Source: Bacteroidales bacterium
GTDB taxonomy: Bacteria > Bacteroidota > Bacteroidia > Bacteroidales > P3
DNA length: 58,069 nucleotides
Assembly (NCBI GenBank): GCA_017455205.1
Contig: JAFTBM010000059.1
Coordinates: 1-58,069, forward strand
Reading direction: 5' to 3'
Made by a program: the position numbers and the translations under genes. Positions 9,079-56,765 of the stretch are shown piece by piece. Every line of letters begins with the position of its first letter. Within the stretch, counting starts at the first letter, position 1. The notes beneath the pieces are model-generated. The model was not told where the DNA came from. It saw only the letters and a program-made list of their open reading frames with translations, and did not search any database.

Positions 9079-9188
9079 TTTAGCCCGTGTTTAGCCCGTG
9101 TTTGGACCGTGTTTGGTTCGTGTTAGGTCCGACTCCACTCGGAGGTGACACGGAGGTGACACGGACATGACACGGAGATGACACGGAC
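9079..9188 (+). repeat. 11-nt phased intergenic element, type 1, copy A
   Basis: Ten consecutive 11-nt units with no register slip. The left half is TTTAGCCCGTG twice, TTTGGACCGTG, TTTGGTTCGTG, TTAGGTCCGAC. The centre is TCCACTCGGAG. The right half is GTGACACGGAG, GTGACACGGAC, ATGACACGGAG, ATGACACGGAC, then CAAGTG. The halves are roughly inverted relative to each other (CCGTGTTT against GACACGG). It occupies most of the 471-bp gap between the STAS gene and the next gene. Confidence 0.9.
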
Positions 9189-9205
9189 CAAGTGGGTAGA
9201 AAAAA

Positions 9206-9262
9206 GGTTACAGGTTATGGGTTATGGGTTATAGAGAATTGAGTATTGAGAATTGAAAATTG
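9206..9262 (+). repeat. GGTTATG tandem plus AATTGAG/AATTGAAAATTG repeat
   Basis: 9206-9233 is a degenerate 7-nt tandem (GGTTACA, GGTTATG, GGTTATG, GGTTATA). It is followed at 9234-9262 by GAGAATTGAGTATTGAG and AATTGAAAATTGG. The second part recurs in inverted orientation at 56615-56647, again beside a type 1 phased element. The first part resembles 24369-24407. The rest of the gap 8965-9435 shows no gene. Confidence 0.75.
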
Positions 9263-9435
9263 GTTGGGAGCAGGTCGAATTGGGGGCGGGATGCGGTCGG
9301 TGGAATAAAAAAATGTGGCCACAGGCAATATCGGCAGGCTGGGAGCGTTATGAGGGTAATAGAATTCAGGCAGGGAGTCTCCCACGTGCGTGCCCGCTGA
9401 AGCATTGTAGTTACAAACAAAAAAACAAAAAGGAC

Positions 9436-10473
9436 ATGGAGAAAAAAGACCTCCTGAAAGAGACCGTCAAACACATTGACATTAAGAAGTACGACTCGAC
9501 CGAGCTCATCAACGCTATGCGCAGCATGAGCTTCACCAGCCGCGACACAGCACGTGCAGCCGACATCCTCTGCCAGATGTTGGCCGAGAAGGATTGCACC
9601 AACATCCTGACCATCGCGGGTTCCACCTCGGCGGCAGGCTGCATGCAGGTGTATGTGGACATGGTGCGAAGCAAGATGGTGGATGCGGTCGTGAGCACGG
9701 GTGCGAGCATCATTGATATGGACCTCTTCGAGGCGCTGGGCTTCAAGCACTACATTGGTACCAAGGAGAACGTCATCCCCGACACCAAGCTGCGCGAGCT
9801 CTACATCGACCGTATCTACGACACCTTCATCGACGAGGAGGAGCTGCAAGCCTGCGACCAAGCCACTTGCGATGTGGCCGACAGCCTCGAGCCGCGTCCC
9901 TACAGCAGCCGTGAGTTCCTCTACGAGGTGGGCAAATGGTTGGCCGAAGGGCACGGTGTGAAGAAAGAGAGTCTCATCCAGACATGCTATGAGTGTGGGG
10001 TGCCGATATTCTGCCCCGCGTTTAGCGATAGCTCGGCGGGATTTGGCATCGGTAAACACCAGTGGCTGCGCAAGAAAGCGGGCAAGCCCTACGTCAGCAT
10101 CGACTCGGTGGCCGACTTCCTTGAGCTGACCGAGATCAAGATGAACGCCCCCGAGAGTGGCCTGTTTATGGTCGGTGGTGGCACGCCGAAGAATTTTGCG
10201 CAGGACACGGTGGTGTGTGCAGAAATCCTCGGGAAAGAAGTTCCCATGCACAAATATGCTATCCAGATCACCGTGGCCGATGTGCGCGACGGTGCCTGCT
10301 CTTCCAGCACGCTGCTCGAGGCAGGCAGCTGGGGCAAAGTGAGCGAGGAATTGCAGCAGATGGTATATGCCGAAGGCACCACCGTCATTCCCGCCATCGT
10401 CAGCTATGCCTACCACAATGGGGCTTGGCGCGAGCGCGAGTATAAGAACTGGCAGAAACTGTTCAAAAAATAA
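9436..10473 (+). CDS. Deoxyhypusine synthase-family protein (NAD-dependent aminobutyltransferase)
   Basis: 345 residues, matching deoxyhypusine synthase along its length: AGSTSAAGCM, DAVVSTGASIIDMD, CYECGVPIFCPAFSDSSAGFGIG, VGGGTPKNFAQDT. The active-site lysine motif is SWGKV with Lys301, equivalent to the SWGKI lysine of eukaryotic enzymes. Bacteria lack eIF5A, so the substrate is probably a polyamine (for example homospermidine formation from spermidine or putrescine), not a protein. The ATG at 9436 follows AAAAAGGAC; the frame is open further upstream through repeats, which I exclude. A terminator lies 54 nt after the stop. No other polyamine gene is in the window. Confidence 0.85.
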   Translation: MEKKDLLKETVKHIDIKKYDSTELINAMRSMSFTSRDTARAADILCQMLAEKDCTNILTIAGSTSAAGCMQVYVDMVRSKMVDAVVSTGASIIDMDLFEALGFKHYIGTKENVIPDTKLRELYIDRIYDTFIDEEELQACDQATCDVADSLEPRPYSSREFLYEVGKWLAEGHGVKKESLIQTCYECGVPIFCPAFSDSSAGFGIGKHQWLRKKAGKPYVSIDSVADFLELTEIKMNAPESGLFMVGGGTPKNFAQDTVVCAEILGKEVPMHKYAIQITVADVRDGACSSSTLLEAGSWGKVSEELQQMVYAEGTTVIPAIVSYAYHNGAWREREYKNWQKLFKK

Positions 10474-10526
10474 CGTTGGCCAGTAGGGCGGATAGTTTGT
10501 CTACATCTTATTGAAGTGGCATCGCT

Positions 10527-10545
10527 GCGGCGGTGCCGCTTTTTT
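10527..10545 (+). terminator. Intrinsic terminator after the DHS-like gene
   Basis: GCGGC-GGT-GCCGC followed by six T. It lies between the DHS-like gene and the Nudix gene, whose start at 10559 is 13 nt further on, so the Nudix gene may depend on read-through or its own promoter. Confidence 0.75.
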
Positions 10546-10558
10546 GGAGAACAAGGCA

Positions 10559-10969
10559 ATGATGCAATGCGAAGCAGGTGAGCGGAGGGTGGTGGAGGTG
10601 GTGGCAGCGGCCATCATCGACGGCGCACGGGTGCTGGCCACGCAGCGCGGCTATGGCGAGTGGGACGGATGGTGGGAATTCCCGGGTGGGAAAGTGGAAC
10701 AGGGAGAGGGTAGGGAAGAGGCTTTACGGCGGGAGCTGCGTGAAGAGTTGCGGCTCGAGGTGGAAGTGGGGGAAAGGCTGGCCTCGGTGGATTACGACTA
10801 TCCGCAGTTCCACTTGAGGATGCACCTCTACCAGTGTCGCCCACTGGGCAGAGCCACGCTTGGCGAGCATCGTGCTGCTCGTTGGCTTGGGGCGGACGAG
10901 TTGGAAAGCGTGGAGTGGTTGCCTGCCGACCTCGAGCTGCTCCCACGGCTAAAAGCATTATTGGCGTAG
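10559..10969 (+). CDS. Nudix hydrolase, MutT/8-oxo-dGTP type
   Basis: 136 residues. The Nudix box GKVEQGEGREEALRRELREEL (10687-10749 region) fits Gx5Ex7REUxEE, with Arg in place of the usual Gly near the end. EFPGG precedes it and the N-terminus RRVVEVVAAAIIDGARVLATQRGYG is that of MutT-like (8-oxo-dGTP diphosphatase) enzymes, which clear oxidised nucleotides. The end WLGADELESVEWLPADLELL is also typical. I take the ATG at 10559 (AAGGCA just before) or the next one at 10562. The frame extends to 10511 but that would run through the terminator. Genes on both sides are unrelated. Confidence 0.88.
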   Translation: MMQCEAGERRVVEVVAAAIIDGARVLATQRGYGEWDGWWEFPGGKVEQGEGREEALRRELREELRLEVEVGERLASVDYDYPQFHLRMHLYQCRPLGRATLGEHRAARWLGADELESVEWLPADLELLPRLKALLA

Positions 10970-11030
10970 ACAATAAGATAAGCAAAGCATCGTTACCCCA
11001 AAGATAGAAACAATAAATTACATCCAAAAT

Positions 11031-12305: not shown

Positions 12306-12325
12306 GGAGAGAGAGCAGATAGCGT

Positions 12326-12360: not shown

Positions 12361-12498
12361 ATTTCCATTGGATGATAGATAATTGGGCAAAAGTGCTATC
12401 GCCAATTTCACCATACAAGGGCAACAAAATAACACCCGCTGCGTCTACTATGCGGACAAAGAAAAGCATTTTTTTTATGACTTATTAAAAAAATAATT

Positions 12499-12648: not shown

Positions 12649-15600
12649 ATGAGACGGAAGATTTCATTTGTTGTTGTTGGATTGCTGTTGGCATGGGTGC
12701 TGCCGATGAAGGTTGAGGCACAGGGGAGTGGGTTGTCGTCGTATATCTTTTCAACGGGTGTAAGTACAGCGAAGTGGAAGACGCTGACCGCCTCAACCAA
12801 TATTCTGCCAGAGGATGATGATGAGGTTACGAGTGCGCTGTACCCGATTGGTTTTTCGTTTCCGTTTGGAGGAACTTCGTATACCCACTTTTCGGTGACA
12901 GAAAACGGAGCGATGCGATTGGGAGCGGTGAACTCCGTTTTTCCGTATAGTTCGCCGCTATCGAGTAGCAATGCGGCCAAGGATGCACCCAAGATTGTGG
13001 GTAGGGGAGCGGATGGGTATTCGTTCAGCGGCGTAAACCATGTGTATTACCAAACGTTTGGTGATACAATGCTGGTGGTGGATTGGGTGCTATCGCCTTA
13101 TCGTGACGAAGATATACTGATGCCTTTTCAGGTACAGTTGTTTTTGAGTGGGAAAATACTGATAGTGTATAAAACAGCGACTGGTACACCATCATCGTTT
13201 CAGGTGGGAATGTGTATTGACGCGACGGATGGTTGGGTAATAGATGAGTCGGGGACGACATCAACACATTTCACTAATGGGAGTTCTACGGAGGTGGACG
13301 ATTGGCCAGCCAATGGTCGGTGGTATCAGTGGAGGCCGCGGAACAACTGCTCGTATCCGACAAATGTGGTAGTCTCGGGGGTGAATTCGAGCGGATATAC
13401 GGTTACGTGGGATGCAGTAACAGGAGCACAGGGATATGTACTATATAATAATTTGACGGAGCATTCGGTTACGGGGACTTCGTATACTGTTAGCGGACTT
13501 GCAGGGTGCGAAGGCGACTATACGATGTCGGTGATGGCCGTTTGTGGTACGAGCGAGGGCGATACCTCGGTACCATATACAACCATTGTAAACCTTGGGG
13601 GAACGGTGTCGTATCACGAGGATTTTGATTCATATACAGGTGGCGGCGTTAGCACAGACTGCACCTGGGATGGCATCTCCACCGACTACTCCTCACGCAC
13701 ACTGCCCACCGGGTGGATATTCCCCGGTGCCTACGCAGGCAACAACCCGAGCGATGCAACCAGCAACATCTGGCTCAGTCAGGAAACCTGCTCTGGACCA
13801 GACCCATTGACGGGTAGTGTAACCCACATGGAATTTAAGCACGCATCTCCCAGCCTGAAGACTTATGCTGCAATGCCGACCTTTGGGATTTCGGCGGCGA
13901 GCATAAATCTGGAGTTTAAGTATATGATTGAGAACAGTTGTGTTACCATGTATTTGGGTATCATGACTGACCTCAGCAGCGAGTCGGCAGCCATAGCCTC
14001 CTACCAGCGGCTGAAGACCCTTGATACGAGGAATGCGTGGACTACCGTGCAGGCGGATCTTTCCACGCTGCTCAATGCCGACTACCCAGCAAACTCGTAT
14101 CGCATCGTGTTTGAATATGCCAACTCGTGCAGCGGTCTTGGATATAGAGGCTATATCGACGAGTTGAAGATAGGGCGAGAAACTTGTGTGTCGCCCACTG
14201 GGGTGGAGTTTACCAACGTCACGGCTAATAGTCTGCGAGTGGGTTGGAGCAGTTCAGCTCCTTCATCGGCTACCTACACTATCTACCTTGACGGGGTGGA
14301 GTATGCCACCACGGCGGCAGGGGCTACCTATTACGACATTACGGGGCTTACCCCGTTGAGCCGCCACTCGGTAGGGGTGCGTACCAACTGCGTGGCTTGC
14401 GAACAGAACAGTCAAACCGTTACTATAAACACCCGCACCATGTGCGACGGTACAGTTACGCTGCCCTACAGCGAGAACATGGATGCCTACAGCTATGGAG
14501 TCTCTACCAGCACTTCTGCTCCCTCGGTCTACCCCAACAATTTGCTGCCTGCTTGCTGGACATTCACAGGCCTCAGCAGTTCGGCCAGCACCTACCCGCA
14601 GGCTTTCTTCTCCACAGCCAATGCGCATCAAACCAACAGCCTGATGTTTGTCAATTCATCGAGCAGCAATGTGAGCTATGCTGCCTTGCCATTAGTGTCG
14701 GGTGTGAACGTGGAGCACCAGCGGCTCGACTTCTGGTATCGCAACAGTGCCACCAGCACAGCATCGGGCGAGATCACCATCGGCACTATGGTTGACCCCA
14801 GCGATGCCTCCACCTTTGTGCCGCTGCGGACGCTCTCCAAGGTAACCTCGTGGACGAGAATACAGGACACCATCGGCCTCCACGACCCAGCAGCCAATGC
14901 TCGCTACGTGGCATTCCGCTACTCGGGCGGGACGAGCAGCTCGGGTTGGGCGGCGATAGACAGCGTGCGGGTAACCGAGGTACAGTGCCTCCCCGTTAGT
15001 GGCCTTACCACCACTAACGTAACCTCAACAAGCATGCGCCTCACGTGGAAAGACCACAACCACGGGACAACAACCTACACTATCACCTTCAATGGCAACA
15101 CCTACACCACCGCTGCCGGAGCCACCTACTACGACTTCAACGGCCTTGGAAAAGGGCAAGCCTGCGCTTTTACTATCAGGACGAATTGTAGCGGCCTCAG
15201 TAGCGATGAGCGAATACTCTACACCGCTACGACCTGCTCCGAGGGTGTCTCGCTGACCTACAACGAGCCGTTTGACTACTATGGTGGCAGCATTAGCACA
15301 GGCACTGGTGCACCTTCTGGCTACCCCAGCACACACACTTTGCCCAACTGCTGGGACTTCATCAACCTCAGCACCAGCAGCAGCACCTATCCACAAGCCT
15401 TCTTGACCAACAGCTCCACCTATCGCCTTAGTGCCAACAGCCTACTCTTCAAGAGCAACAGTCTCCGTCCGCTCTATGCCGTCCTGCCTCTACCTACGGG
15501 GACTGTACCTACCAATCGCCTGGAGCTCCAGTTCCAATACAAGCAGTCGGTAACTACCGACAATGTGGGCGTGCTCTCCTATGGCGTGATAGGCAACACA

Positions 15601-18600
15601 TCGGATACACGCACCTTTGTGCAGCTCGGCAAGCTCGAGCGCACCACTGATTGGACTACCATTACCGTCGCCATCGGGGCCTTTGATGCCTACAAAGCAG
15701 CCTTCAGTGGCACCGACCGTCCGCGCGTGGCTTTCCGCTATGATGGGGGCGCATCGGACGGTGCTTACACAGCCATCGAGAACGTCGTCCTGCGCGAGAT
15801 ATGCTTTGGTGGCCTCTATGCCGACAGCGTGGTACCCACGGCCTGTATGCTCCACTGGAGCGACTTCAGTGGTGGCACAAACACCTACACCATATCGCGC
15901 AACGGAAGCGTCATCGCCACCACTGCAGCTGGTGCAGAGCAGTATGAGGTAACTGGACTGATGTCAAGCACCGACTACACCTTCACCGTCCGCCCCAACG
16001 GAGCAGGATGCGATGAGCTGACAGTGCAGGTTCACACCCCCTGCGCAGGCGGCTCACTGCCCTACGCGGAAGACTTCAACGTCTTCACCACCGCGCAAGG
16101 CGTCTCCACTGGTACAGGTGCTCCTACCACCTCAGGCCACCACTATAATGATTACGCCAACGCCATGCCCAACTGCTGGTATCTGATCAACCGCAGTGCC
16201 ACCACCTCCACATACCCGCAGATGTTCCTGACGAGCAGTTCCACTTACCGCGTCAGCGGCAACGGCTTCCTCTTTAGGAGCAACAACTACACACCTGCCT
16301 ATGCCGTGGTGGCCACCAACTTTGGAGTGCCAGCCAGCAAGATGGCCTTCTCGTTCCAATACAAGGTAACCAACGCCACCTACCCGAAGCTGGAATACGG
16401 CGTGATGACCAACCCGGGCGACCCCTCGTCGTTCATCACCCTCGGCTATACCAAGGCCACCAGCTGGCAAGCAGTATCGGACACCCTGCTCAACTACCCC
16501 GACCTCCCCGCTCGCCCCCTCTACCTCGCCTTCCGCTACACCAACGGCAGCACCTCGACCTACTATGGTGCCCTCGATGATGTCCAAATCACCCTCCTGC
16601 CCGAATGTGGTGTCTACGGGCTGACGGCAGTCCCTGTCAGCTCCACCTCCGCCCGCCTCACTTGGCGTAATCCCTATAATTCATCTTATATATACACCGT
16701 CAAGCAGAACGGCGTTACCATAGGGACTACCGCCGCAGGCGACACTACCTATACCGTCACTGGCCTCTCCCTCGGCACCGAATATACCTTTACCGTCGAG
16801 GCCAGCTGCGGAGCCTCTGCTTCTACTAACTTCATCCTCGCTGGCTACGGCTGCATTGACCCTACAGACCTTACAGCCAGCTACACCTCGGCCTACTATG
16901 GCGTCTATGCTAACCCCTATGCCACGCGCGGAGTGGTGAACAACGGCCCTTCGAGCAACTCCAGCCGCCACACTATCCACACCGACATAAACGAATACGA
17001 TGCCCGCACCAACAACGGCCTCCACACGGTTCCCCCAGGACACACCAAGTCCGTCCGCCTTGGCAACTGGAGCACCAGCCGCCAAGCCGAAGCACTGGTC
17101 TATTCCCTAACCGTCGACACCCTTGTCAGCGACCTTCTTATCCTCAAGTATGCAGCCGTGCTGCAAGCCGCAGGCCATACCGCCTCGCAACAGCCCCGTT
17201 TCACCCTTGAAATCCTTGACGAGGATATGGTGCAAATCGACCCCACCTGCGGCTCGGTAGACTTCATCGCATCCACCAGCCTCGGCTGGAATCAAGTGGG
17301 CTCTGGCAGCAGTGCCGTGCTGTGGAAAGACTGGACGAGCATCGGTATTGACCTCAAGGCATACCATGGGCGGCCTGTATTTATCCGCCTGACCACCTAT
17401 GATTGTGCACAAGGAGCCCACTACGGCTACGCCTACTTCACCCTCGAATGCCAGCGGCGCAACATTGCCTCCACCAGCTGTGGTGAAAGCCAGTTGAGCA
17501 ACACCTTCACCGCCCCCGACGGCTTCAGCTACCAGTGGTATACCGACACCACAACGGCCCCCGTCAGCACCAGCCGCTCTATCACCGTTAGCGGCACAGA
17601 CAACCACATCTACTACTGCCGCCTGACCTTCGTGGACATTCCAGGCTGCACCTTCATGACCAGTGCTTATGCTGGCACGCGCTACCCCCTCGCCCTGTTC
17701 GACACCGTGGTCTCGACCAGCAACTGCCAATTCGACGTGAGCTTTGTCAATCATAGCACCATCACCGCCGATGGCATCAACCCCGTCGGCACGGGCGAAG
17801 GCGTGGAATCAGCCGAATGGAGCTTCCCTGGCAGCACAGGAGATGCCACCTCCAACCAGTATCACGCTACTGCTCACTACAGCAGCCCTGGCACCTACTC
17901 CGCCACCCTCATCGCAAAACTGGCAGGTGGCTCCTGCACCGACACCCTCACCAAGTCCTTCACCCTCGCGGGTGCCATGCCTCCGCTGCTCGAAGGCCCG
18001 CAGCCGCATTGTGCCTCCACCGTCCCCGACACCCTCGTGGTCAAACGCGCCCTCACCACCTCGTGGGGAAGCGACACCATGATTGTCAATCCACAGACCA
18101 CCACCACCTACAACGTGGTAGCCACCGACAGCAACGGCTGCACCTACAACCTCTCCTACACCATTACCATCCAAGCCACCACGCTGGTTGATACCAACGC
18201 CGTCAAATGCGACACCTACACCTGGCGTGGCACCACCTACACCACCAGCGGCGACTATGTCTACCAGAACACCAACGCCTCTGGCTGCGACAGCAACATC
18301 ACGCTCCACCTGACCATCAACAACAGCAACACTGGCGACACCAACGCAACCGAATGCAACACCTTCGCTTGGCACGGCACTACCTACACCGCTACCCCCA
18401 CGCCCGAGCCTACCCACGTCTACACCAACGCTGCAGGCTGCGACAGCACCGTAACCCTCCACCTCACCGTCACCCACTCCAACACTGGCGACACCACCGC
18501 CGTCGTTACCACCAACTTCACCTGGTACGGCACCACCTACACCGAGACCCCCCAAGTAGCCCCCACCCACACCTTCACCAACGCCGCAGGCTGCGACAGC

Positions 18601-20685
18601 GTGGTAACCCTCCACCTCACCATCAACAAGAGCACTGTGGGCTTCGACACCCTCACCGTCTGCGACAGCCTCCATTGGAAAGGCAGAACCCTCAACATCT
18701 CGGGCGACTACCAGTTCGATACACTCAACGTGGCTGGTGCCGACAGCACACTCTTCTTCCACCTCACCGTCATCTACTCCACCGATAGCACCTTCTTCGA
18801 CACCATCGTTGAGAACCAACTCCCCTACATCTTCAACGGTCGCACCTACACCGCATCCGTCGCTTCCGACACCATCATCATCCCCAACGCAATCGCTTGC
18901 GACAGCATCATGGTCTACAATCTCCACGTCTACCTCAATCGCTACGCCACTGCCGACAGCACCGTCTGCGACAACTGGCTGCCTCTCGTCTGGAACGGCG
19001 AGACCTTCACCGATGCCGGCACTGCTACCGCTACCCTCACCGCACAGCACGGCGAGGACAGCATCCTCACGATGAATGTCCACGTCAGCCCCACCTATAC
19101 TATCGACGACTACGACACCATCGTCGAAAACCAGCTCCCCTACCTTTGGCACGGCCTCACCTTCACTGACTCCGACGACCAAACCACCACCCTCACCAGC
19201 CGCGCCCACTGCGACAGCACCGTAACTATGCACCTCTATGTGTGGCACAACCTCACCGCCACCGACGACAGCACCGTCTGCGAAAACCACTTCCCAGTCC
19301 TCTGGAACAACGTCATCTTCAACGATGCAGGCGTCAAATCAGCCACCCTCACCGCACAACACGGCGAGGACAGCGTCGTTACCATGACCCTCCACGTCCA
19401 ACCCACCTACGCCACCACCGAGTACGCTACCATCTGCGACAACCAGTCCTACCCCTTCGGTGGACGCAACTACAACACCGAAGGCACCTATCGCAACCCC
19501 ATGCACACCGTCCGTCACCACTGCGACAGCATCGCAACCCTCATCCTCTCCGTCAACCCCACCTACCGCTTCGACTTCACCGACGACATCTGTGCTAGCC
19601 AAAACTACCAGTGGGAAACCTTCTCCTGGACAGCCATGCAGGCCGATGCCTCCGGTGCCTCGCAGACCCGCACATTCAACGAAACCTACAACGGCACCAG
19701 TCGCCACGGCTGCGACAGCATCCGCTCCCTCCGCCTCACCGTCCACGGCCTCTACTTCAACGCCGCGCAGGACATCTTCTGCTTCGGCGAACCCTACTCC
19801 TGGCGCGGACGTACCATCAACCTCAACAGCGAACGCGACAACACCGAAAAGACCACTACCCTCCGCGACACCCTAAAGACTAACCTATTCCACTGCGACT
19901 CTGTCTTCCAAATCACTCTCACCCAGCGTGCGCACCCCGTCGTCAGCCTCACCTACGACAAAGGCTGCGTCTACCGTATCCACCTCCTCACCGACGCTCC
20001 CTACCACGTCATCACCGCAGACCCCACCGACCCCAACCTCGCTGGCTTCGAGTATAGCACCTCCTTCTCCACCTCCATCGAGGTACCCACTGAGTACACC
20101 GTCCATGCCGACTTCGCCGAAACCCCCACCTGTCCCTACACCGCTACCCTCCGCCTCAACCCCATCGAACCCCTCCGCGCACAGCTCAGCTTCAGCCCCG
20201 AAGTCCTCACTGCCGACAACCTCGAATACAACCTCTACGATCTCGGTCAAGCCTCCCACTCGCGCCGCTGGTATATCGACGACATCCTCCAGCCCGACAC
20301 CGCTTGGCATCTTATCCGCCACGCCGACTACGCCCACGACAGCATCCGCGTCGAACTCCAAGTCTTCTTCGATGGCTGCTCCGACACCACCCGTGCCGTC
20401 ATCCCTATCCGCCACAGCGCCATCTTCGTCCCCAACGTCTTCACCCCAACGCGTCCCGACGAGCAAAACCGCCAGTTCTGCATCCAAGGCCAAGACATCG
20501 TCTCGGGCGAGCTCCGCATCTACAACCGCGAAGGTCTCCTCGTCTTCCAAACCGACAACTACACCGACTGCTGGGACGGCGCCGACCTCCCGCAAGGCGT
20601 CTACATCTGGTACTTCTCCTACTACATCAAAGGCCAACCCAACGCCAACTTCACCGAGACTGGCAGCGTTCTCCTCCTCCGCTAA
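12649..20685 (+). CDS. Giant T9SS-secreted surface protein with FN3, MAM-like, PKD and Cys-repeat domains
   Basis: 2678 residues. A signal peptide occupies about 1-25. Up to about 230 there is a beta-rich domain (YPIGFSFPFGGTSY). FN3 modules (for example about 235-310, 510-595, 780-860, 1057-1125, 1320-1400) then alternate with four choice-of-anchor-J/MAM-like domains that open with (Y)xEDFDxY or LPYSENMDAY and contain LPxCWxFxNLS. About 1690-1785 is PKD-like (SAEWSFPG, GTYSATL). About 1840-2420 holds some eleven repeats of roughly 40-55 residues, many with W-x-G-x-T-Y and GCDS-x-x-T-L-x-L. The end, IFVPNVFTPTRPDEQN ... GELRIYNREGLLVFQ ... CWDG ... QGVYIWYF, is the CHU_C/gliding-motility type (type B) T9SS signal. 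The first ~330 codons use AT-rich codons, then composition turns GC-rich abruptly near 13640. Role likely adhesion or cell-surface matrix. Confidence 0.9.
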   Translation: MRRKISFVVVGLLLAWVLPMKVEAQGSGLSSYIFSTGVSTAKWKTLTASTNILPEDDDEVTSALYPIGFSFPFGGTSYTHFSVTENGAMRLGAVNSVFPYSSPLSSSNAAKDAPKIVGRGADGYSFSGVNHVYYQTFGDTMLVVDWVLSPYRDEDILMPFQVQLFLSGKILIVYKTATGTPSSFQVGMCIDATDGWVIDESGTTSTHFTNGSSTEVDDWPANGRWYQWRPRNNCSYPTNVVVSGVNSSGYTVTWDAVTGAQGYVLYNNLTEHSVTGTSYTVSGLAGCEGDYTMSVMAVCGTSEGDTSVPYTTIVNLGGTVSYHEDFDSYTGGGVSTDCTWDGISTDYSSRTLPTGWIFPGAYAGNNPSDATSNIWLSQETCSGPDPLTGSVTHMEFKHASPSLKTYAAMPTFGISAASINLEFKYMIENSCVTMYLGIMTDLSSESAAIASYQRLKTLDTRNAWTTVQADLSTLLNADYPANSYRIVFEYANSCSGLGYRGYIDELKIGRETCVSPTGVEFTNVTANSLRVGWSSSAPSSATYTIYLDGVEYATTAAGATYYDITGLTPLSRHSVGVRTNCVACEQNSQTVTINTRTMCDGTVTLPYSENMDAYSYGVSTSTSAPSVYPNNLLPACWTFTGLSSSASTYPQAFFSTANAHQTNSLMFVNSSSSNVSYAALPLVSGVNVEHQRLDFWYRNSATSTASGEITIGTMVDPSDASTFVPLRTLSKVTSWTRIQDTIGLHDPAANARYVAFRYSGGTSSSGWAAIDSVRVTEVQCLPVSGLTTTNVTSTSMRLTWKDHNHGTTTYTITFNGNTYTTAAGATYYDFNGLGKGQACAFTIRTNCSGLSSDERILYTATTCSEGVSLTYNEPFDYYGGSISTGTGAPSGYPSTHTLPNCWDFINLSTSSSTYPQAFLTNSSTYRLSANSLLFKSNSLRPLYAVLPLPTGTVPTNRLELQFQYKQSVTTDNVGVLSYGVIGNTSDTRTFVQLGKLERTTDWTTITVAIGAFDAYKAAFSGTDRPRVAFRYDGGASDGAYTAIENVVLREICFGGLYADSVVPTACMLHWSDFSGGTNTYTISRNGSVIATTAAGAEQYEVTGLMSSTDYTFTVRPNGAGCDELTVQVHTPCAGGSLPYAEDFNVFTTAQGVSTGTGAPTTSGHHYNDYANAMPNCWYLINRSATTSTYPQMFLTSSSTYRVSGNGFLFRSNNYTPAYAVVATNFGVPASKMAFSFQYKVTNATYPKLEYGVMTNPGDPSSFITLGYTKATSWQAVSDTLLNYPDLPARPLYLAFRYTNGSTSTYYGALDDVQITLLPECGVYGLTAVPVSSTSARLTWRNPYNSSYIYTVKQNGVTIGTTAAGDTTYTVTGLSLGTEYTFTVEASCGASASTNFILAGYGCIDPTDLTASYTSAYYGVYANPYATRGVVNNGPSSNSSRHTIHTDINEYDARTNNGLHTVPPGHTKSVRLGNWSTSRQAEALVYSLTVDTLVSDLLILKYAAVLQAAGHTASQQPRFTLEILDEDMVQIDPTCGSVDFIASTSLGWNQVGSGSSAVLWKDWTSIGIDLKAYHGRPVFIRLTTYDCAQGAHYGYAYFTLECQRRNIASTSCGESQLSNTFTAPDGFSYQWYTDTTTAPVSTSRSITVSGTDNHIYYCRLTFVDIPGCTFMTSAYAGTRYPLALFDTVVSTSNCQFDVSFVNHSTITADGINPVGTGEGVESAEWSFPGSTGDATSNQYHATAHYSSPGTYSATLIAKLAGGSCTDTLTKSFTLAGAMPPLLEGPQPHCASTVPDTLVVKRALTTSWGSDTMIVNPQTTTTYNVVATDSNGCTYNLSYTITIQATTLVDTNAVKCDTYTWRGTTYTTSGDYVYQNTNASGCDSNITLHLTINNSNTGDTNATECNTFAWHGTTYTATPTPEPTHVYTNAAGCDSTVTLHLTVTHSNTGDTTAVVTTNFTWYGTTYTETPQVAPTHTFTNAAGCDSVVTLHLTINKSTVGFDTLTVCDSLHWKGRTLNISGDYQFDTLNVAGADSTLFFHLTVIYSTDSTFFDTIVENQLPYIFNGRTYTASVASDTIIIPNAIACDSIMVYNLHVYLNRYATADSTVCDNWLPLVWNGETFTDAGTATATLTAQHGEDSILTMNVHVSPTYTIDDYDTIVENQLPYLWHGLTFTDSDDQTTTLTSRAHCDSTVTMHLYVWHNLTATDDSTVCENHFPVLWNNVIFNDAGVKSATLTAQHGEDSVVTMTLHVQPTYATTEYATICDNQSYPFGGRNYNTEGTYRNPMHTVRHHCDSIATLILSVNPTYRFDFTDDICASQNYQWETFSWTAMQADASGASQTRTFNETYNGTSRHGCDSIRSLRLTVHGLYFNAAQDIFCFGEPYSWRGRTINLNSERDNTEKTTTLRDTLKTNLFHCDSVFQITLTQRAHPVVSLTYDKGCVYRIHLLTDAPYHVITADPTDPNLAGFEYSTSFSTSIEVPTEYTVHADFAETPTCPYTATLRLNPIEPLRAQLSFSPEVLTADNLEYNLYDLGQASHSRRWYIDDILQPDTAWHLIRHADYAHDSIRVELQVFFDGCSDTTRAVIPIRHSAIFVPNVFTPTRPDEQNRQFCIQGQDIVSGELRIYNREGLLVFQTDNYTDCWDGADLPQGVYIWYFSYYIKGQPNANFTETGSVLLLR
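18181..19923 (+). repeat. About eleven tandem protein repeats (WxGxTY ... GCDS) within the giant gene
   Basis: Successive units of roughly 40-55 codons share a Cys or Val near the start, W-x-G-x-x-Y/F, and (G)CDSxxTLxLxV at the end. Units two and three are the most alike. Two alternating sub-types occur in the middle: one with ENQLPYxxxG and one with STVCxNxxPxxWN and AQHGEDS, each present twice. This suggests duplication of a two-unit block. Confidence 0.8.
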
Positions 20686-20803
20686 TCCCACCGCCCGCGA
20701 CGACAAAGCCAAGGTCGCCGTTGCCCGCACTGAAAGCATGGCAGCGGCGACCTGTCGTTTTCCCCCTAATTCCCCCTCCTACCGACCTGCCACTTCCGCC
20801 GTG

Positions 20804-20902
20804 TTTAGTCCGCGTTAAGTCCGTATTTGGTTCGTGTTTGGTCCGTATGGAGTCGGAGGTGACACGGACCTGACACGGAGATGACACGGAGATGACACGG
20901 AC
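20804..20902 (+). repeat. 11-nt phased intergenic element, type 1, copy B
   Basis: Nine 11-nt units in register: TTTAGTCCGCG, TTAAGTCCGTA, TTTGGTTCGTG, TTTGGTCCGTA, centre TGGAGTCGGAG, then GTGACACGGAC, CTGACACGGAG, ATGACACGGAG, ATGACACGGAC and CAAGTG. Same orientation as copy A. It lies in the 384-bp gap after the giant gene; nothing else is recognisable there. Confidence 0.9.
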
Positions 20903-21069
20903 CAAGTGCCTCCCCGCAGCGTGCTTCGTCTCCATAGTCAAGTGTATTATTTAAGTTTTTTTAACATAAGAAAAGCGCAATATCGGATTTCAGTGGGCGT
21001 TAATAGGGCAAATTGGTTCGGAGCAGTATGCTTCGGCAAGGCATAAGAAAACAAATAAAGGATAAAGAT

Positions 21070-24368: not shown

Positions 24369-24407
24369 GGGGTTATAGGTTAAGGGTTATAGGTTATAGA
24401 ATAGGGG
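24369..24407 (+). repeat. GGTTATAG-like tandem between mtnN and luxS
   Basis: GGGTTATAGGTTAAGGGTTATAGGTTATAG units fill the short gap, similar to 9206-9233. It is probably a simple dispersed repeat. Confidence 0.7.
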
Positions 24408-25100
24408 TTACAGGGTTTCAAGAAATGCTTTGATGAAGCGGAAGGAGCGGTCGCACATGGAGGCGAGGAAGCTGTCCCACTGCTGCTGGTGGTCGTCGGT
24501 GTTGCCGGGGGTGTCGCTGATGACGCGTAGGCTGAGGAAAGGGATATGCTCAAGGTAGCAGGTCTGCGCGATGGCGGCACTCTCCATATCGCAGGCCAGT
24601 CCGTCGGGGAAGTTGCTCTTGATAACGCTTTGCCGCTCGCGGTCGGTGATGAATTGGTCGCCAGTGCATATTAGGCCTGTGCGAAGTACGGGAGCGGTGG
24701 TGCCGTCCAACGGCTGCTTTGCAGTGGCAAGGGCGTGAGCGAGCAGACGGGTATCGGCTTCGTAGCGAGCGGGAAGCCCCTGCACCTGCCCGAGGGGGCA
24801 GACTTCATCGCTGCCACTGATGCCGCCGCAGTCCACATCGTGGTAGACGCACTCTGCCGCGGCGAAGATGTCCATCACCTGCACTTTCGGGTCGATGCCG
24901 CCTGCCAGGCCGGTGCTGACGATGGCGTCAGGGTGATGCATCTGGATAAGACGCATTGTGCCTACGGCAGCGTTCACCTTGCCGATGCCGCATTGCCAAA
25001 GCACGATTTCGTTGCCTCCCAGCTGCCCACAGTCGCCATCGAGGACATCGTGCATCTGGCGGTATTCCACGTCCATAGCTATAATTACTCCAATTTTCAT
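24408..25100 (-). CDS. mtnN: 5'-methylthioadenosine/S-adenosylhomocysteine nucleosidase
   Basis: 230 residues. It hydrolyses MTA and SAH to adenine plus the S-ribosyl product used by LuxS. Family motifs: MKIGVIIAMDVEYR at the start, CGIGKVNAA, VSTGLAGGI, TGDQFI, and CDMESAAIAQTC with the substrate-binding Met-Glu; the catalytic Asp is in SDTPGN. The ATG at 25100 is chosen because a -7 box lies 31 nt upstream; a long open frame to 26402 runs antisense through the histidine-kinase gene and is not coding. It is followed by luxS, and divergent from the kinase gene. Confidence 0.96.
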   Translation of the reverse strand: MKIGVIIAMDVEYRQMHDVLDGDCGQLGGNEIVLWQCGIGKVNAAVGTMRLIQMHHPDAIVSTGLAGGIDPKVQVMDIFAAAECVYHDVDCGGISGSDEVCPLGQVQGLPARYEADTRLLAHALATAKQPLDGTTAPVLRTGLICTGDQFITDRERQSVIKSNFPDGLACDMESAAIAQTCYLEHIPFLSLRVISDTPGNTDDHQQQWDSFLASMCDRSFRFIKAFLETL

Positions 25101-30066: not shown

Positions 30067-30177
30067 CGCTTTTTCCCTCTATCCTCCAACAAATATCCGA
30101 TTTCGCCATCGGCTGTCCATCCGCCACCCTTTTTCCACCCCTTCCCAGCCAGTTTTCGCCCCCCTGTGGATAGGCAC

Positions 30178-30254
30178 CCGCTCCGTATCCGCTCCGTATC
30201 CGCTCCGTATCCACTCCGTATCAAGTCCGTATCCGAGCGGTGAGCATACGGCTT
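30178..30254 (-). repeat. 11-nt phased intergenic element, type 2, copy E
   Basis: Seven 11-nt units in register. As printed: CCGCTCCGTAT three times, CCACTCCGTAT, CAAGTCCGTAT, CCGAGCGGTGA, GCATACGGCTT. Its reverse complement aligns unit by unit with copy F at 47061-47137. It lies in a divergent intergenic region. Confidence 0.88.
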
Positions 30255-36803: not shown

Positions 36804-36877
36804 TGGTTGTCCCACCTGGATTCGAACCAAGACAAACAGAACCAAAATCTGGTGTGCTACCATTACACCATGGGACA
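36804..36877 (-). tRNA. tRNA-Gln (anticodon TTG)
   Basis: On the minus strand: acceptor TGTCCCA pairs with TGGGACA; the D-arm is TGGTGTAATGGTAGCACA; the anticodon loop TTTTGGT gives anticodon TTG (reads CAA). The T-arm contains GGTTCGAATCC. Discriminator A and a genome-encoded CCA end at 36804. The 5' end is at 36877. A -7 box lies 38 nt upstream and a terminator directly after. Confidence 0.95.
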
Positions 36878-38190: not shown

Positions 38191-38623
38191 AGCATTTTTG
38201 CTCTATCCACCTAATCACCTTGCCTTACCACCCAATAGTGCCCGAAATATTTTTGTGAATAATCTTCACCAAGATGTGTAGGTGCCAAGCTTTCGAGGCC
38301 ACCGTCCACAGTGATGAAATCAAGTTACCCCCACCACACTTGGCTTCACCACATTAATATAAGGTGGGGCTTCGGCGATGGAGAAGGCGGCATCAATGCC
38401 AATGGCGGAGGGTGGTCGGGCGAACCTCTTGTGCCTGTATGAATGCACCAAGTTGGAAATATCAAGCTCTTGGGAAGTATGGGGGAGAAGGTCTCCCCTG
38501 TGTCGCATCACGAAAGAAACCCCTCAGCAGCCCCCAATTATGCAGAGGGAAGGTTTCAGACTTCTGCTATGATGCAGCGAGGGAGAACTCTCACCCCGAA
38601 GGCGAAGGAGCTGCCGCGAGGGA

Positions 38624-38733
38624 CTTGACCCGTGCTTGATGCGTTTCTGGCACGTGTTAGCCCCGTGTGATGTCCGACTCGAGTCGGAGGTGACACGGAC
38701 CTGACACGGAGTTGACACGGAGTTGACACGGAC
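38624..38733 (+). repeat. 11-nt phased intergenic element, type 1, copy C
   Basis: Ten 11-nt units: CTTGACCCGTG, CTTGATGCGTT, TCTGGCACGTG, TTAGCCCCGTG, TGATGTCCGAC, TCGAGTCGGAG, GTGACACGGAC, CTGACACGGAG, TTGACACGGAG, TTGACACGGAC, then CAAGTC. The centre contains CCGACTCGAGTCGG (38674-38687), a perfect 14-bp palindrome. The rest of the 1.1-kb divergent gap 38191-39299 shows no gene I can support, only short spurious frames. Confidence 0.9.
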
Positions 38734-39269
38734 CAAGTCCCTCCCACTACGGGGTAAAATCTTTCCCATTGCGAAATTTATAGTAGCGCGTTTAGGACGC
38801 GATTGCCTATCACCTACGCTTCACGATCAAAATTTTTCAATCGTCTTCCTACCCACCTCCACTGTGCGGATACCCCTTTGACGGCATCCGATGCGTCGGC
38901 CATTGCAGCCCTCTTCGCATCCTCATCTTCCTCGCAAAAGGTGGGCTGGGAGAGAGGAAAAAGTGTAAGTGTAGAGTGTTTTTATACCATATTGATATCC
39001 AGTTTTCTATTGATAGATAAGAAAGCAACACGGAGGTTGAATTCTGGGGATGGGGAGTGGAAACAAGGGTTAAAAAGAGGGTTGAGGGAGAGGGGGAGAG
39101 AGGCTGTGCGAGAGGGGAGGGTAGGCTAGGGTGGGGCAGTTAAGAGACGGGCTTAACGAAGGCGGGTTTCGTCGGTAGCGGCCTTGCGACGGGAGGCAAC
39201 AATGAGGAAAATGTGGGGCGTTGCACAATAAATTTGCACTGCTGTTGTTCTACTTTGCAAAAAAATGTG

Positions 39270-39299: not shown

Positions 39300-40127
39300 A
39301 TGAAGAGAAATATAGCACTCGCACTGCTGATGCTGGCCGCTACGGCAGTCTTTGCTGCACCGAAGAGCCACAAGAATTCACGCACCGAGATGGGAATTCA
39401 TGGCAACGCTATCTACGTGATTGAATACACCTACAACCTGCGAGGAGGACGCGACGGGGGGCGCCAGTTGATATGTATAGATAGTATCACCTTCGACAAG
39501 CGTGGCAACCTCAGCGACAAGTTCCGCACCAAGGCCGATGACTACACGTGGTATAGTTATTTTTTCGACGTCAATGGCTACAGCCTTGGCTGGAACGAGT
39601 ACAACCGCGAGAAGATGCTCACTGGGCGCACGGCCTACCTCAACGACAAGGAGGGCAACCGCATAGAGCGCACCGTCTTCCTCGGCAACCAGATGACCAA
39701 GCGCGAGAGTAGCACCTTCCGCAACGGCCTCAAGATGGAGGAGCAGAGCTTCGACCCAGACGGGGCGATGACCGAAAAGCGCGTCTACAAGTATGACCAG
39801 AAGGGCAACTGCACCGAGATGGAGTTCTACAACCGCAACGGCGAGTTGATGCAGCACTATCTCTACAAATACGACACCCGAGGCAACTGCATCGAGTGGC
39901 GCTTCTATGATGCCGACGAGTTCCTCTCGGCACTGACCACTTACTACTACGACGACCATGACAACCTGATAGAGGTCTCCTCGTTCAACTACGATGAGCA
40001 TCTCAACTGGAAGCACAGCTACGTCTACGAGTATGACGAGGACGACAACTGGGTGCGCAAGACGATCTACCGCAACAACGTCCCCTATCAAGTCATCGAG
40101 CGCGAGATAGCATTCCCGGTGGATTGA
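39300..40127 (+). CDS. Secreted YD-repeat-like protein of unknown function
   Basis: 275 residues with a signal peptide ending near AVFAA. The body consists of repeated short strand pairs of the form YDxxGNxxExxxYNxxGExxxxxxYKYDxRGNxxEWRFY, like the YD/RHS motif: TFDKRGN, YDQKGNCTEME, YDTRGNCIEWR, YDDHDNLIEVS, YDEDDNWVRKT. It is therefore likely a small beta-structured periplasmic or surface protein. It is too short to be an Rhs toxin and has no toxin tip. It has its own -7 box and is followed 15 nt later by a DUF4160 gene, perhaps by chance. No function is known to me. Confidence 0.75.
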   Translation: MKRNIALALLMLAATAVFAAPKSHKNSRTEMGIHGNAIYVIEYTYNLRGGRDGGRQLICIDSITFDKRGNLSDKFRTKADDYTWYSYFFDVNGYSLGWNEYNREKMLTGRTAYLNDKEGNRIERTVFLGNQMTKRESSTFRNGLKMEEQSFDPDGAMTEKRVYKYDQKGNCTEMEFYNRNGELMQHYLYKYDTRGNCIEWRFYDADEFLSALTTYYYDDHDNLIEVSSFNYDEHLNWKHSYVYEYDEDDNWVRKTIYRNNVPYQVIEREIAFPVD

Positions 40128-47060: not shown

Positions 47061-47137
47061 GCCCCGTATCTTCACCGCCCGGATACGGACTTGATACGGA
47101 GCGGATACGGAGTGGATACGGAGTGGATACGGAGCGG
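47061..47137 (+). repeat. 11-nt phased intergenic element, type 2, copy F
   Basis: Seven 11-nt units: GCCCCGTATCT, TCACCGCCCGG, ATACGGACTTG, ATACGGAGCGG, ATACGGAGTGG twice, ATACGGAGCGG. It matches copy E (30178-30254) in reverse orientation, including TCACCGCyCGG and ATACGGACTTG. It lies in the 605-bp divergent gap 46866-47470; no gene is seen in the rest. Confidence 0.88.
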
Positions 47138-47451
47138 ATGCCTACCTATGATTGATTTCCAGGATATTAGATGCTTATTCGATGTCTATTGCTTTGATAT
47201 TTCGATGTTTGAGGATGGGAAATGAGTCTGTCGGCGGGGCGAAGTTGAAGTGGGGAAAATGGGGGCGAAAAATAAAGTAGTTCGCGCACGAAGTAATTTT
47301 CGGGGGCGTTTCGGGAGCTATTTTGGGGCATTCGGGCGGTTGGAAAGTCGGTGGAGGGGGGACGGCTGCGGTGGGCGGGGAACGAGGTGCATTTGTGGAG
47401 GAAACGGAGTTGGCAGAGTGAAATTTCGGCTGGCGGAAATAAAAAAATGTG

Positions 47452-53011: not shown

Positions 53012-53014
53012 CGG

Positions 53015-53833: not shown

Positions 53834-53856
53834 AGGTCTCTCTGCTATTGTGTTGG

Positions 53857-54384: not shown

Positions 54385-54388
54385 AAGA

Positions 54389-55012: not shown

Positions 55013-55023
55013 TCTCCCAATAG

Positions 55024-56424
55024 TTATAATGTTACTTCCTCGCGGAATTCAGGGATACTCACCGCTTTCCAGCCAGCCTCGCCCAGCGTGACGGCAAAGT
55101 GCTGCTGCGTTTCGGCTTCGCCGTGGACAAGGAATATCTGCTTCATGCGTTTCGGGTCTTGACACGAGATGTAGCGAATCATCTCGCCGTAGTCGCCATG
55201 TCCCGAGAGACCTTCAATCCGGCGCAGCTCGGCTCGCACAGAGTGCGTCTGGCCGAAAATAGAGACCGTCTTGTCGCCACGCATGATTTTGGCACCAAGC
55301 GTGGAGGGTTCACAATAGCCCACGCATAGCACCGTGGTGGATGGATTTTCGATATGATTGGCCAGGTGGTGCTTCACGCGCCCAGCCTCCATCATGCCGC
55401 TGGCTGCGATGATGACGCAGGGCTTATGCCGAATGTTGAGCTGCTTGCTTTCCATCACACTTTGGATATAGTGCAGGCGGTCGAACCCGAAGGGGTCGGG
55501 GTCGGTCTTGCAGTACTCGCCGATGGCTTCGTTGAAACACTCGGTGTGGAGCCGCATAATGTTGGTGGCACTGACCGAGAGTGGACTATCCACAAACACG
55601 TCGATATCGGGTAGCAACTTGGCATGTTCCAGCCGGTCGAGTGCATAGATAATCTCCTGTGCTCGGCCAATGGCAAAACTGGGGATGATAAGCTTGCCTT
55701 TCTTTTTGGTGCAAGTGTCGAGTACTGCCATCAGCAGTTCTTGCTCGGCATTTTGCAGCGTCTCGTGCAGGCGGTCGCCGTAGGTGCTTTCCATAATCAG
55801 GTAGTCTACCTGTGGAAATGGTTCGGGATCCTTCAAAATTTGCTTGTCGTAGCGTCCGATATCGCCCGTAAAGCCTAACCTCACTGTGCGTCGCCCTTCT
55901 TTGATTTCGAGGTAGACCAGTGCCGACCCGAGTATATGGCCAGCATCAAAGAACTCCACCGTCACCTCACCTTCGATGTTGAACTTTTTGTGGTAGGGTA
56001 CACTGATAAAGCAGCTCATGCACTGCTGCGCATCCTGCTCATCATAAATAGGCTCCACAGGCTCCAGTCCCTGTGCTTTGCGTTTCTTGTTGAAGGTGTA
56101 GGTATCCTGCATCTGGATACGTCCGGCATCGGCCAGCATGATGGCGCAGAGGTCGCGCGTGGCAGGTGTGCAAAGCACCGTACCGCGAAACCCATTTTTG
56201 TAGATGTAGGGTATCAAGCCGCTATGGTCGATATGTGCATGGCTCAGGATAAGGTAGTCCACTTCCGAGGGGTCGAACCCGAGGTCGCGGTTCATAGCAT
56301 CGGTTTCAAGTCCTTTGCCTTGATACATACCGCAGTCGAGCAGTATCTTCAAGCCGCTCCGAGTGGTGAGCAGGTGTTTGCTACCAGTAACCTCGCGTGT
56401 GGCACCCATAAATTGTAGTTTCAT
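55024..56424 (-). CDS. Metallo-beta-lactamase-fold RNA exonuclease (CPSF73/Ysh1-like)
   Basis: 466 residues. The zinc motif SHAHIDHSG (61-69) and the beta-CASP region: SFAIGRAQEIIYAL (motif A), VDSPLSVSATNIM, IAASGMMEAGRVKHH (motif B), and near the end GLSGHGDYGEM (motif C) give a full MBL/beta-CASP/RMMBL enzyme. Such bacterial proteins process or degrade RNA. It is the first gene of the eight-gene minus-strand run through cls. The 584-bp divergent gap upstream holds a type 1 phased element; I find no clear -7 box for it. Confidence 0.92.
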   Translation of the reverse strand: MKLQFMGATREVTGSKHLLTTRSGLKILLDCGMYQGKGLETDAMNRDLGFDPSEVDYLILSHAHIDHSGLIPYIYKNGFRGTVLCTPATRDLCAIMLADAGRIQMQDTYTFNKKRKAQGLEPVEPIYDEQDAQQCMSCFISVPYHKKFNIEGEVTVEFFDAGHILGSALVYLEIKEGRRTVRLGFTGDIGRYDKQILKDPEPFPQVDYLIMESTYGDRLHETLQNAEQELLMAVLDTCTKKKGKLIIPSFAIGRAQEIIYALDRLEHAKLLPDIDVFVDSPLSVSATNIMRLHTECFNEAIGEYCKTDPDPFGFDRLHYIQSVMESKQLNIRHKPCVIIAASGMMEAGRVKHHLANHIENPSTTVLCVGYCEPSTLGAKIMRGDKTVSIFGQTHSVRAELRRIEGLSGHGDYGEMIRYISCQDPKRMKQIFLVHGEAETQQHFAVTLGEAGWKAVSIPEFREEVTL

Positions 56425-56614
56425 ATCGCTTTATGTTTGTTTTCAAAAGGCTTTCTTTTGGGATGCATTGCTCCCTCGCCATAACTAACGGCTACACCTC
56501 TTTTTTATTTTGCAAACCCATAGCGACGAAGAAAAAAGGTTTGGGAAAGCAAAAGTGCCCTAACCGTTTTATCAGAAACTTCGTAAAGGAAAAGATTTTT
56601 TCCTTGTGGAGGGT

Positions 56615-56647
56615 GAATTTTCAATTCTCAATTTTCAATTTTCAATT
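56615..56647 (-). repeat. AATTTTCAATT repeat beside phased element D
   Basis: GAATTTTCAATTCTCAATTTTCAATTTTCAATT is the inverted counterpart of 9234-9262. In both places it lies on the CCAAGT side of a type 1 element. Confidence 0.75.
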
Positions 56648-56655
56648 AGGACTTG

Positions 56656-56765
56656 GTCCGTGTCATCTCCGTGTCATCTCCGTGTCATCTCCGTGTCATC
56701 TCCGTGTCACCTCCGACTCCATACGGACCATACACGGACCATACACGGGCCATGTACGGCCTAAA
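56656..56765 (-). repeat. 11-nt phased intergenic element, type 1, copy D (inverted)
   Basis: As printed: GTCCGTGTCAT, CTCCGTGTCAT three times, CTCCGTGTCAC, CTCCGACTCCA, TACGGACCATA, CACGGACCATA, CACGGGCCATG, TACGGCCTAAA. Ten units in register, preceded by ACTTG (CAAGT on the other strand), as in copies A-C. It lies in the divergent gap 56425-57008. Confidence 0.9.

What the first reader, a model, noticed from the sequence alone, without database searches (positions are those of the whole stretch)
9079..56765. Four copies of a 99-110 bp intergenic element built in exact 11-nt register (GACACGGA type)
Copies at 9079-9188, 20804-20902, 38624-38733 and 56656-56765 (inverted) each split into 9 or 10 consecutive 11-nt units with no indel. 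Left-half units are of the TTTGGTCCGTG type, right-half units of the NTGACACGGAS type, all ending CACGGACCAAGT. The unit sequences vary, so the period is conserved more strongly than the letters. Eleven nt is about one DNA turn, so the varying bases would sit on one face with the conserved CGG/CCG on another. This suggests a cooperatively bound nucleoid-type or regulatory protein, or a structured RNA. I know of no named Bacteroidota element with this plan.
Basis: seen in the sequence. Interest (0 to 1): 0.85.

Follow-up and report, generated by a model that had tools for sequence, protein, structure and literature searches.

The report
Evenly spaced 11-base DNA arrays
Chromosomes of a group of uncultured rumen bacteria carry, about every 10,000 bases between genes, a roughly 100-base element built of repeats exactly 11 bases long, whose period, spacing and in part place are kept while its letters are replaced, which suggests that it organises the chromosome through DNA shape rather than sequence.

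Summary
All four window copies check out, and the window holds two more of a second family (30171-30251, 47064-47144). A scan that knows only a period finds 41 period-11 arrays in 408 kb of this genome; all are intergenic, and periods 8, 10, 12 and 13 give none. They have several unrelated unit sequences yet keep clear of one another: 35 spacings, mean 10.6 kb, minimum 5.9 kb, CV 0.33; 0 of 5000 null placements are as regular. Eight of ten other species of the genus have arrays, mostly with other units; spacing was as even in the five that could be tested. An orthologous gap is about ten times likelier to hold an array if its counterpart does; at one gap 7 of 9 species do, with five unit types. 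Arrays favour divergent gaps and nearly avoid convergent ones. Stretches from 20 other families had none. Best reading: a non-transcribed architectural element, a phased, dyad-symmetric platform for a DNA-wrapping or bridging protein. No binder was sought or shown. Gyrase sites resemble it but fit only in part; a mobile palindrome with cross-family exclusion is the main rival.

The parts
9079..9193 (+). family A element, 5 left + 5 right 11-nt units; between a STAS gene and a deoxyhypusine synthase-family gene (tandem)
20799..20907 (+). family A element; between a 2660-codon gene with a CHU_C type IX secretion domain and the next gene (tandem)
38618..38738 (+). family A element, left arm more decayed; in a divergent gap (Wzy_C-domain gene minus, gene 39300-40127 plus)
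56651..56766 (-). family A element, inverted; in a divergent gap (metallo-hydrolase gene minus, beta-barrel protein gene plus)
30171..30251 (-). family B element (GATACGGAG units); divergent gap (ABC ATPase minus, M24 peptidase plus)
47064..47144 (+). family B element; divergent gap (glycosyltransferase minus, DUF4835 plus)
9213..9262 (+). AT-rich heptanucleotide arrays (GGTTATG, GAGAATT) just right of copy 1; a companion in this genome, not in the others compared
56616..56647 (-). AT-rich heptanucleotide array on the right side of the inverted copy 4

Best explanation
These are DNA-level architectural elements. Each is a stretch of about 80-135 bp of intergenic, probably little-transcribed DNA in which a step such as CpG recurs once every 11 bp, about one helical turn, in two arms mirrored about a dyad. 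A twofold-symmetric protein complex, as yet unknown, is proposed to recognise the phasing (indirect readout) and to wrap, bend or bridge the DNA there, so that the elements punctuate the chromosome about every 10 kb as domain or insulator sites. Because shape and not letters is read, unit sequences are free to drift, to be homogenised within a species and to be swapped between families, while period, symmetry, spacing and, in part, place are kept. Shown here: period, dyad symmetry of most arrays, intergenic location, even spacing across families, partial positional conservation with sequence replacement, divergent-gap bias, absence from the sampled stretches of other families. Inferred: binding protein, wrapping, lack of transcription, topological or insulating role.
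For: Period-only scan: 41 of 41 period-11 arrays intergenic in 408 kb, 0 intergenic at periods 8, 10, 12, 13. Even spacing across unrelated families, 0 of 5000 null placements as regular, also when gap type is weighted. Families A and B mix in proportion (AB 40, AA 26, BB 14), and none of the 80 spacings among 136 listed copies is below 4.5 kb. Spacing also even in five other species after merging pairs under 1 kb (sd 5 of 5000 simulations, minimum 0 of 5000) and for one family over the G010 contigs (1 of 69 spacings below 3 kb, 11.5 expected). Array at the orthologous gap: 58 of 207 pairs when the query gap has one, 82 of 3083 when not; with both gaps at least 250 bp 58 of 115 and 59 of 1247. 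One gap with arrays in 7 of 9 species and five unit clusters. In the variable left arm of 72 family A copies 348 of 394 CpG sit in one of 11 phases; in 37 B copies 102 of 179. In L303 the two arms have different units but the same mirrored CCG/CGG register. Divergent gaps enriched, convergent avoided: divergent/tandem/convergent 39/26/2 with arrays against 91/344/82 without.
Against: No binding protein was sought or identified. Unit sequences are not more bend-prone than their own permutations (Fisher p 0.20 for roll, 0.42 for GC). The dyad offset of the roll/GC maximum agrees among the better-sampled clusters but not significantly over nine clusters (p 0.24 and 0.45). 27 of 82 arrays do not pass the 95% null for dyad symmetry. 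Some species lack arrays in the part scanned (0 in 80 kb of G139 and of G076), so they seem dispensable. Four pairs of arrays only 92-801 bp apart occur among the 80 named loci (three of them lie in one gap each, the fourth was not checked) and one in G066. In the B left arm the register fades beyond the inner units. Near-identical copies within G029 look like recent copying.
Confidence: 0.45

Rival explanations
1. Non-autonomous mobile palindromes (MITE- or REP-like) that spread by an unknown transposase or by gene conversion; insertion near any existing array is disfavoured (target immunity that acts on structure, not on letters), which gives the even spacing.
For: Terminal motifs in G000 (GTAGGGACTT left of 25 of 74 copies, AGTCCCTACC right of 10) and on both sides in G029. 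In G029 686 pattern matches, about six per array in the 100 printed rows, hence by estimate about a hundred arrays, with the same order of unit variants in many printed copies. Species-specific places exist (arrays at 0 of 9, 0 of 72, 0 of 8 and 0 of 7 orthologous gaps for L285, L315, L337, L327).
Against: Exclusion holds between unrelated families. Arrays recur at orthologous gaps. Y1 transposases have no match in 9 of 20 searched genomes, among them G029, 97% complete. In the G010/G141 gaps that differ, more than the array differs. No autonomous copy or target duplication came up, but none was searched for systematically. A fixed 11-nt period is not needed for transposition.
Confidence: 0.25
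2. Cruciform or hairpin DNA that absorbs negative supercoiling between divergent promoters; the arms matter because they pair.
For: Near-perfect palindromes in L288, L290, L362 and G029, with unit changes mirrored between the arms in L288 and L290. Preference for divergent gaps, where negative supercoiling builds up (the physics is recalled).
Against: In family A 2461 of 3960 mirrored cells form Watson-Crick pairs, mostly the CGTG core, the rest does not covary; in family B and G010 complementarity is weak while the register is partly kept. A stem does not need an 11-nt tandem period.
Confidence: 0.12
3. Strong DNA gyrase sites: gyrase wraps about 130 bp with periodic arms on both sides of the cleavage site.
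For: Published motif: 130 bp, symmetric, arms with 10.75-bp GC periodicity (PMC6379681, passages and section 23); the gyrases tested there have a 10-11 bp GC period (PMC12324340, section 12). Similar length, symmetry and period here.
Against: Core bases at the inferred dyad of 72 family A copies only partly fit: -4G 0, +8C 0, +1G 0, +4C 0, -2A 53, +6T 72. Arrays avoid convergent gaps, where positive supercoils gather (physics recalled).
Confidence: 0.1
4. Structured RNA or transcription terminator.
For: Very stable predicted stems in some copies (RNA mfe -107.2 and -101.7 kcal/mol for 145 nt of L288 and L290); 11 bp is the turn of A-form RNA (recalled).
Against: Divergent-gap bias and near absence from convergent gaps; no covariation in family A; weak predicted folding of L295 (-12.7); no Rfam hit at the elements.
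Confidence: 0.04

Closest known systems
DNA gyrase motif / strong gyrase sites (E. coli Topo-Seq, Mu SGS)
   Same: about 130 bp, dyad-symmetric, arms with a period near 11 bp, read through DNA shape
   Different: gyrase sites are degenerate, not exact 11-nt tandem repeats, and not known to me to be evenly spaced; core bases only partly fit here
REP / BIME elements with RAYT (TnpA-REP) transposases
   Same: many copies, intergenic, palindromic; BIME-2 sites are bound by gyrase (PMC6379681 passage); a GTAG stretch at the left end of some copies in G000
   Different: REPs are 20-40 bp (abstract start of PMC3733652) and defined by sequence; here the sequence is free, the period is fixed, copies are evenly spaced, and Y1 transposases have no match in 9 of 20 genomes
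MITEs and other small interspersed repeats (RUP, BOX, ERIC, RU-1)
   Same: intergenic, often inverted repeats, about 100-170 bp, tens to hundreds of copies (partly recalled; RU sizes from an abstract start)
   Different: none of them, as recalled, keeps a fixed internal period while the letters are replaced, or shows exclusion between families
parC of plasmid R1 (11-bp repeats in two groups, bound by ParR; recalled)
   Same: 11-bp units in two groups of five
   Different: direct repeats at one plasmid site beside the par genes; here inverted arms, by extrapolation about 200 chromosomal places, free sequence
Heptanucleotide short tandem repeats of cyanobacteria and others (recalled)
   Same: tandem short intergenic arrays; heptads abut arrays in G000
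   Different: period 7, and not tied to the 11-nt arrays in the other genomes compared

Membership tests
DNA gyrase strong site | two arms with a period near 10.75 bp around a centre | tested here: met
   period exactly 11 with mirrored arms; 55 of 82 arrays pass the dyad null; caveat: GC amplitude of units no greater than in permutations
DNA gyrase strong site | core preference -4G/+8C, -2A/+6T, +1G/+4C | tested here: not met
   family A, 72 copies: -4G 0, +8C 0, +1G 0, +4C 0, -2A 53, +6T 72; the dyad position is inferred
DNA gyrase strong site | gyrase binds and cleaves there | not testable with these tools
   needs Topo-Seq or purified enzyme
REP/RAYT | a Y1 (TnpA-REP) transposase in the genome | tested here: not met
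   3 matches in G000, but none in 9 of 20 searched same-genus genomes, among them G029, 97% complete
REP/RAYT | one short conserved palindrome with a GTAG or CGTC tag | tested here: not met
   GGTAGGGACT at the left end of 21 of 74 family A copies; 29 unit clusters among 121 arrays
MITE | terminal inverted repeats and target duplications | tested here: inconclusive
   terminal motifs mostly at the left end in G000, on both sides in G029; no clean empty site among six G010/G141 places inspected
MITE | an autonomous parent element | not tested
   no search for a transposase between array ends was made
Known structured RNA | match to an Rfam family | tested here: not met
   only one tRNA in the window at gathering thresholds
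parC/ParR centromere | adjacent par genes | not tested
   the neighbours examined in the window match other families; no genome-wide search

The most novel reading that the evidence does not exclude
A sequence-free chromosome code: in this genus some 200 sites per genome (extrapolated from 41 in 408 kb), each defined only by an 11-bp helical phase and a dyad, are set out every 10 kb or so between transcription units as topological domain boundaries; many sites hold their place over speciation while their letters are wholly replaced, and lost sites are made good nearby.
Probability: 0.4. Interest if true: 0.95.

Novelty: categorically new. Interest (0 to 1): 0.83.

Why it matters
Topological domains of about 10 kb have long been inferred in bacterial chromosomes (recalled; the abstract start of PMC3820752, seen in a listing, speaks of 400-500 supercoiled domains in E. 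coli), but no DNA element with such even spacing was known to me. If these arrays are domain boundaries, domain organisation becomes directly testable by sequence. They would also be a clear case of selection on helical phase with the letters left free, and a natural comparison exists: species of the same genus in which no arrays were found in the part scanned.

Tried and rejected
Rfam: nothing but a tRNA at gathering thresholds. A family A end pattern in the genome collection and a three-unit pattern in viral contigs: 0 exact matches, with the caveat that the own genome may be left out. RAYT mobilisation: no Y1 match in 9 of 20 searched genomes. Bendability of units against permutations: not significant. 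Phase of GC and roll relative to the dyad: R 0.50 (p about 0.002) and R 0.61 (p about 0.0002) if 24 species-by-cluster rows are counted as independent, not significant at cluster level; a first attempt used poor dyads. Gene context of family A alone showed no strict rule (55 placed copies: divergent 19, tandem 29, convergent 7; 19 of 74 at contig edges). Heptads as a general companion: in G000 10 of 13 period-7 arrays lie within 150 bp of an 11-nt array, in the other ten genomes 0 of 11 (the 80 named loci were not checked for this). Literature: ten paper searches; nothing in the listings describes such arrays, which is a statement about these searches only. Papers opened: PMC6379681 (passages, section 23), PMC12393610 (passages), PMC12324340 (abstract and outline, section 12). 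Others are known from listings only.

Dropped or merged rows: arrays closer than 1 kb were merged (one pair, G066). In one search the B list holds the 52 exact places plus 5 picked from its printed one-mismatch rows; the A list (79) joins 77 of the 80 places (three rows were the other arm of listed copies) with one place each. In one search pairs above 88% identity were left out, and pairs are not independent. In one search the G010 spacing used 88 places from the 100 rows printed (118 matches counted); contigs with one place and rows 11 nt from another were left out. One search drew on all fetched sequence, so some of its 84 A-type arrays come from other species; one search repeats it on this genome alone (72 copies), and I cite that.
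Full report
Check of the finding. The four places were read directly. Each splits into 11-nt units without indel; left units end in CGTG or a variant, right units are of type TGACACGGA, and the right end is ACCAAGT. Two more elements of another family (GATACGGAG units) lie at 30171-30251 and 47064-47144. In the own genome (2.17 Mb, 69 contigs) 80 places match the 26-nt end of family A with up to 3 mismatches (72 exactly), 0 the backward control. For family B, 52 places match a 19-nt pattern exactly.

Anatomy. Between 72 and 84 family A copies were collected in different calls (17, 29, 43, 70, 77, 87). In the 72 copies the left arm is variable but keeps C and G at unit positions 2 and 3 in 67-72 copies in each of five units; 348 of 394 CpG in the left arm fall in one phase of eleven. 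In 37 family B copies it is 102 of 179, and the register fades outward. The right arm is nearly invariant. The register runs through the centre. In family A 2461 of 3960 mirrored cells pair, mostly in the CGTG core; the other positions do not covary (22 cells changed on both sides).

A scan without a sequence model. I scanned 408 kb of the genome (window plus contigs C14, C26, C64, C49, C67) for self-match at shifts 7 to 13, at least 75% over 44 positions. Shift 11 gives 41 segments, all 41 intergenic; shifts 8, 10, 12 and 13 give none, shift 9 one intergenic and three in genes, shift 7 six intergenic. Beyond families A and B the scan found ATTGAAGAACG units with inverted left arm (three places), a CCATCTCCTTA type and a GAAGAAGGGGA type. 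So unrelated sequences in one genome share the period.

Spacing. The 35 spacings between neighbouring arrays have mean 10.6 kb, sd 3.5 kb, minimum 5.9 kb, maximum 19.2 kb, CV 0.33. Random choice among the 116 intergenic gaps of at least 130 bp gives CV 0.76 on average and never reaches 0.33 in 5000 trials; weighting gaps by orientation and length does not change this. Counting the listed A and B copies over the whole draft, 80 spacings have a minimum of 4.5 kb, and neighbours are AB 40, AA 26, BB 14, as expected from free mixing. The families thus keep away from each other as well as from themselves. In the five other species with at least five arrays in 80 kb the minimum was 4.3 kb after merging one close pair (5 of 5000 trials as regular, 0 of 5000 with such a minimum). 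In G010 one family alone gives 69 spacings with one below 3 kb, 11.5 expected. Against this: four pairs 92-801 bp apart were seen among 80 named loci; three of them lie within one gap each (L321, L339, L352), the fourth (L308) was not checked.

Distribution. By pattern, 66 of 120 genus genomes have at least one CGG-type 11-nt run; the backward control also matches in 23, so single matches may be chance. By period alone (70% over 44), 8 of 10 genus genomes have arrays in 80 kb: 41 arrays, 41 intergenic; G139 and G076 have none. Among 80 named loci of related uncultured Bacteroidales, mostly rumen assemblies and one from Candidatus Hemicellulosilyticus sp. P3, 29 have arrays: 39 arrays, 39 intergenic; period 11 is the commonest period from 5 to 25 (39), next 7 (26). 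Twenty stretches from 20 other families of the order (272 kb in all, some only a few kb or less) have none. The 121 arrays fall into 29 unit clusters at a circular distance of at most 2 by single linkage, one of them with 75 arrays.

Orthologous places. Comparing gaps whose flanks align between species, a target gap has an array in 58 of 207 pairs when the query gap has one and in 82 of 3083 when it has not. The first number is dominated by one gap where L284, L288, L290, L291, L295, L301 and L303 have arrays that fall into five unit clusters (L290 and L301 share one, L284 and L303 another), L305 has a weaker one and L296 none. G010 and G141 share two places with different units, one of them with only the left flank aligned, and differ at others that lie a few kb apart. 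G036 and G064 share both places in common synteny, one of them almost letter for letter. Many places are species-specific: 0 of 72, 0 of 9, 0 of 8 and 0 of 7 orthologous gaps in four cases. So place is kept in part and turns over in part.

Gene context. In G000, gaps of at least 150 bp with arrays are 13 divergent, 22 tandem, 1 convergent, without arrays 7, 54, 7 (p 0.004). In the other genomes and loci the numbers are 39, 26, 2 against 91, 344, 82 (p 3e-13; orthologous gaps are counted more than once). Family A copies by themselves include 7 convergent of 55 placed. Genes were called with a simple Markov gene finder trained on the window, so single calls may err. Avoidance of convergent gaps speaks against terminators and for DNA that should not be transcribed; transcription itself was not measured.

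Palindromes. Several arrays are near-perfect palindromes of about 100 bp (G029, L288, L290, L362), and in L288 and L290 unit changes are mirrored between the arms. Others have little complementarity left (family B, G010, L295). 55 of 82 arrays pass the 95% null for a dyad. I read this as birth by inverted copying and later drift of one arm under a constraint on register only; that is inference.

Mechanism. A complex with twofold symmetry that reads helical phase explains period, dyad, free letters and, if it organises the chromosome, spacing. The gyrase motif is the nearest published analogue: 130 bp, symmetric, 10.75-bp arms (PMC6379681), a 10-11 bp period in gyrases of three species (PMC12324340). 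Its core bases are only partly met at the dyad of family A, and units are not more bendable than permutations, so I do not file the arrays as gyrase sites. The distance of the GC/roll maximum from the dyad is 4.5-5.8 bp in five clusters but differs in four others, and the nine-cluster test is not significant.

Mobility. Near-identical copies in one genome (G029) and terminal motifs point to copying. Yet Y1 transposases have no match in 9 of 20 genomes searched, exclusion acts across families, and places recur between species. A structure-reading mobile element with immunity stays possible.

Verdict. Chromosome architecture is the best-supported class of explanation, at 0.45.

Noticed in passing
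window 9213-9262, 24370-24414, 56616-56647: AT-rich heptanucleotide arrays (GGTTATA/GGTTATG, TTGAGAA/TTGAAAA); in this genome most lie directly beside an 11-nt array, in the other genomes compared not.
   Followed up: partly
own genome, contig ends: 23 of 124 listed arrays lie within 600 bp of a contig end (3.2% expected), so repeats next to arrays probably break the assembly.
   Followed up: no
genus genomes G128, G134: The backward control pattern matches often (55/49 and 131/96 matches), which suggests 11-nt arrays of yet another type there.
   Followed up: no
G010:C1:1-342, 1270-1688, 3315-3414, 13234-13500 (L236): Tandem arrays of period 7, 8 and 9 between genes, apart from the 11-nt arrays.
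   Followed up: no
window 12706-20685: Gene for a very large protein with fibronectin III domains, a CHU_C (type IX secretion) end and repeats of about 153 bp.
   Followed up: no
window 36807-36877: tRNA gene on the minus strand.
   Followed up: no
window 9436-10473: A deoxyhypusine synthase-family protein (PF01916), unusual for a bacterium as far as I recall.
   Followed up: no
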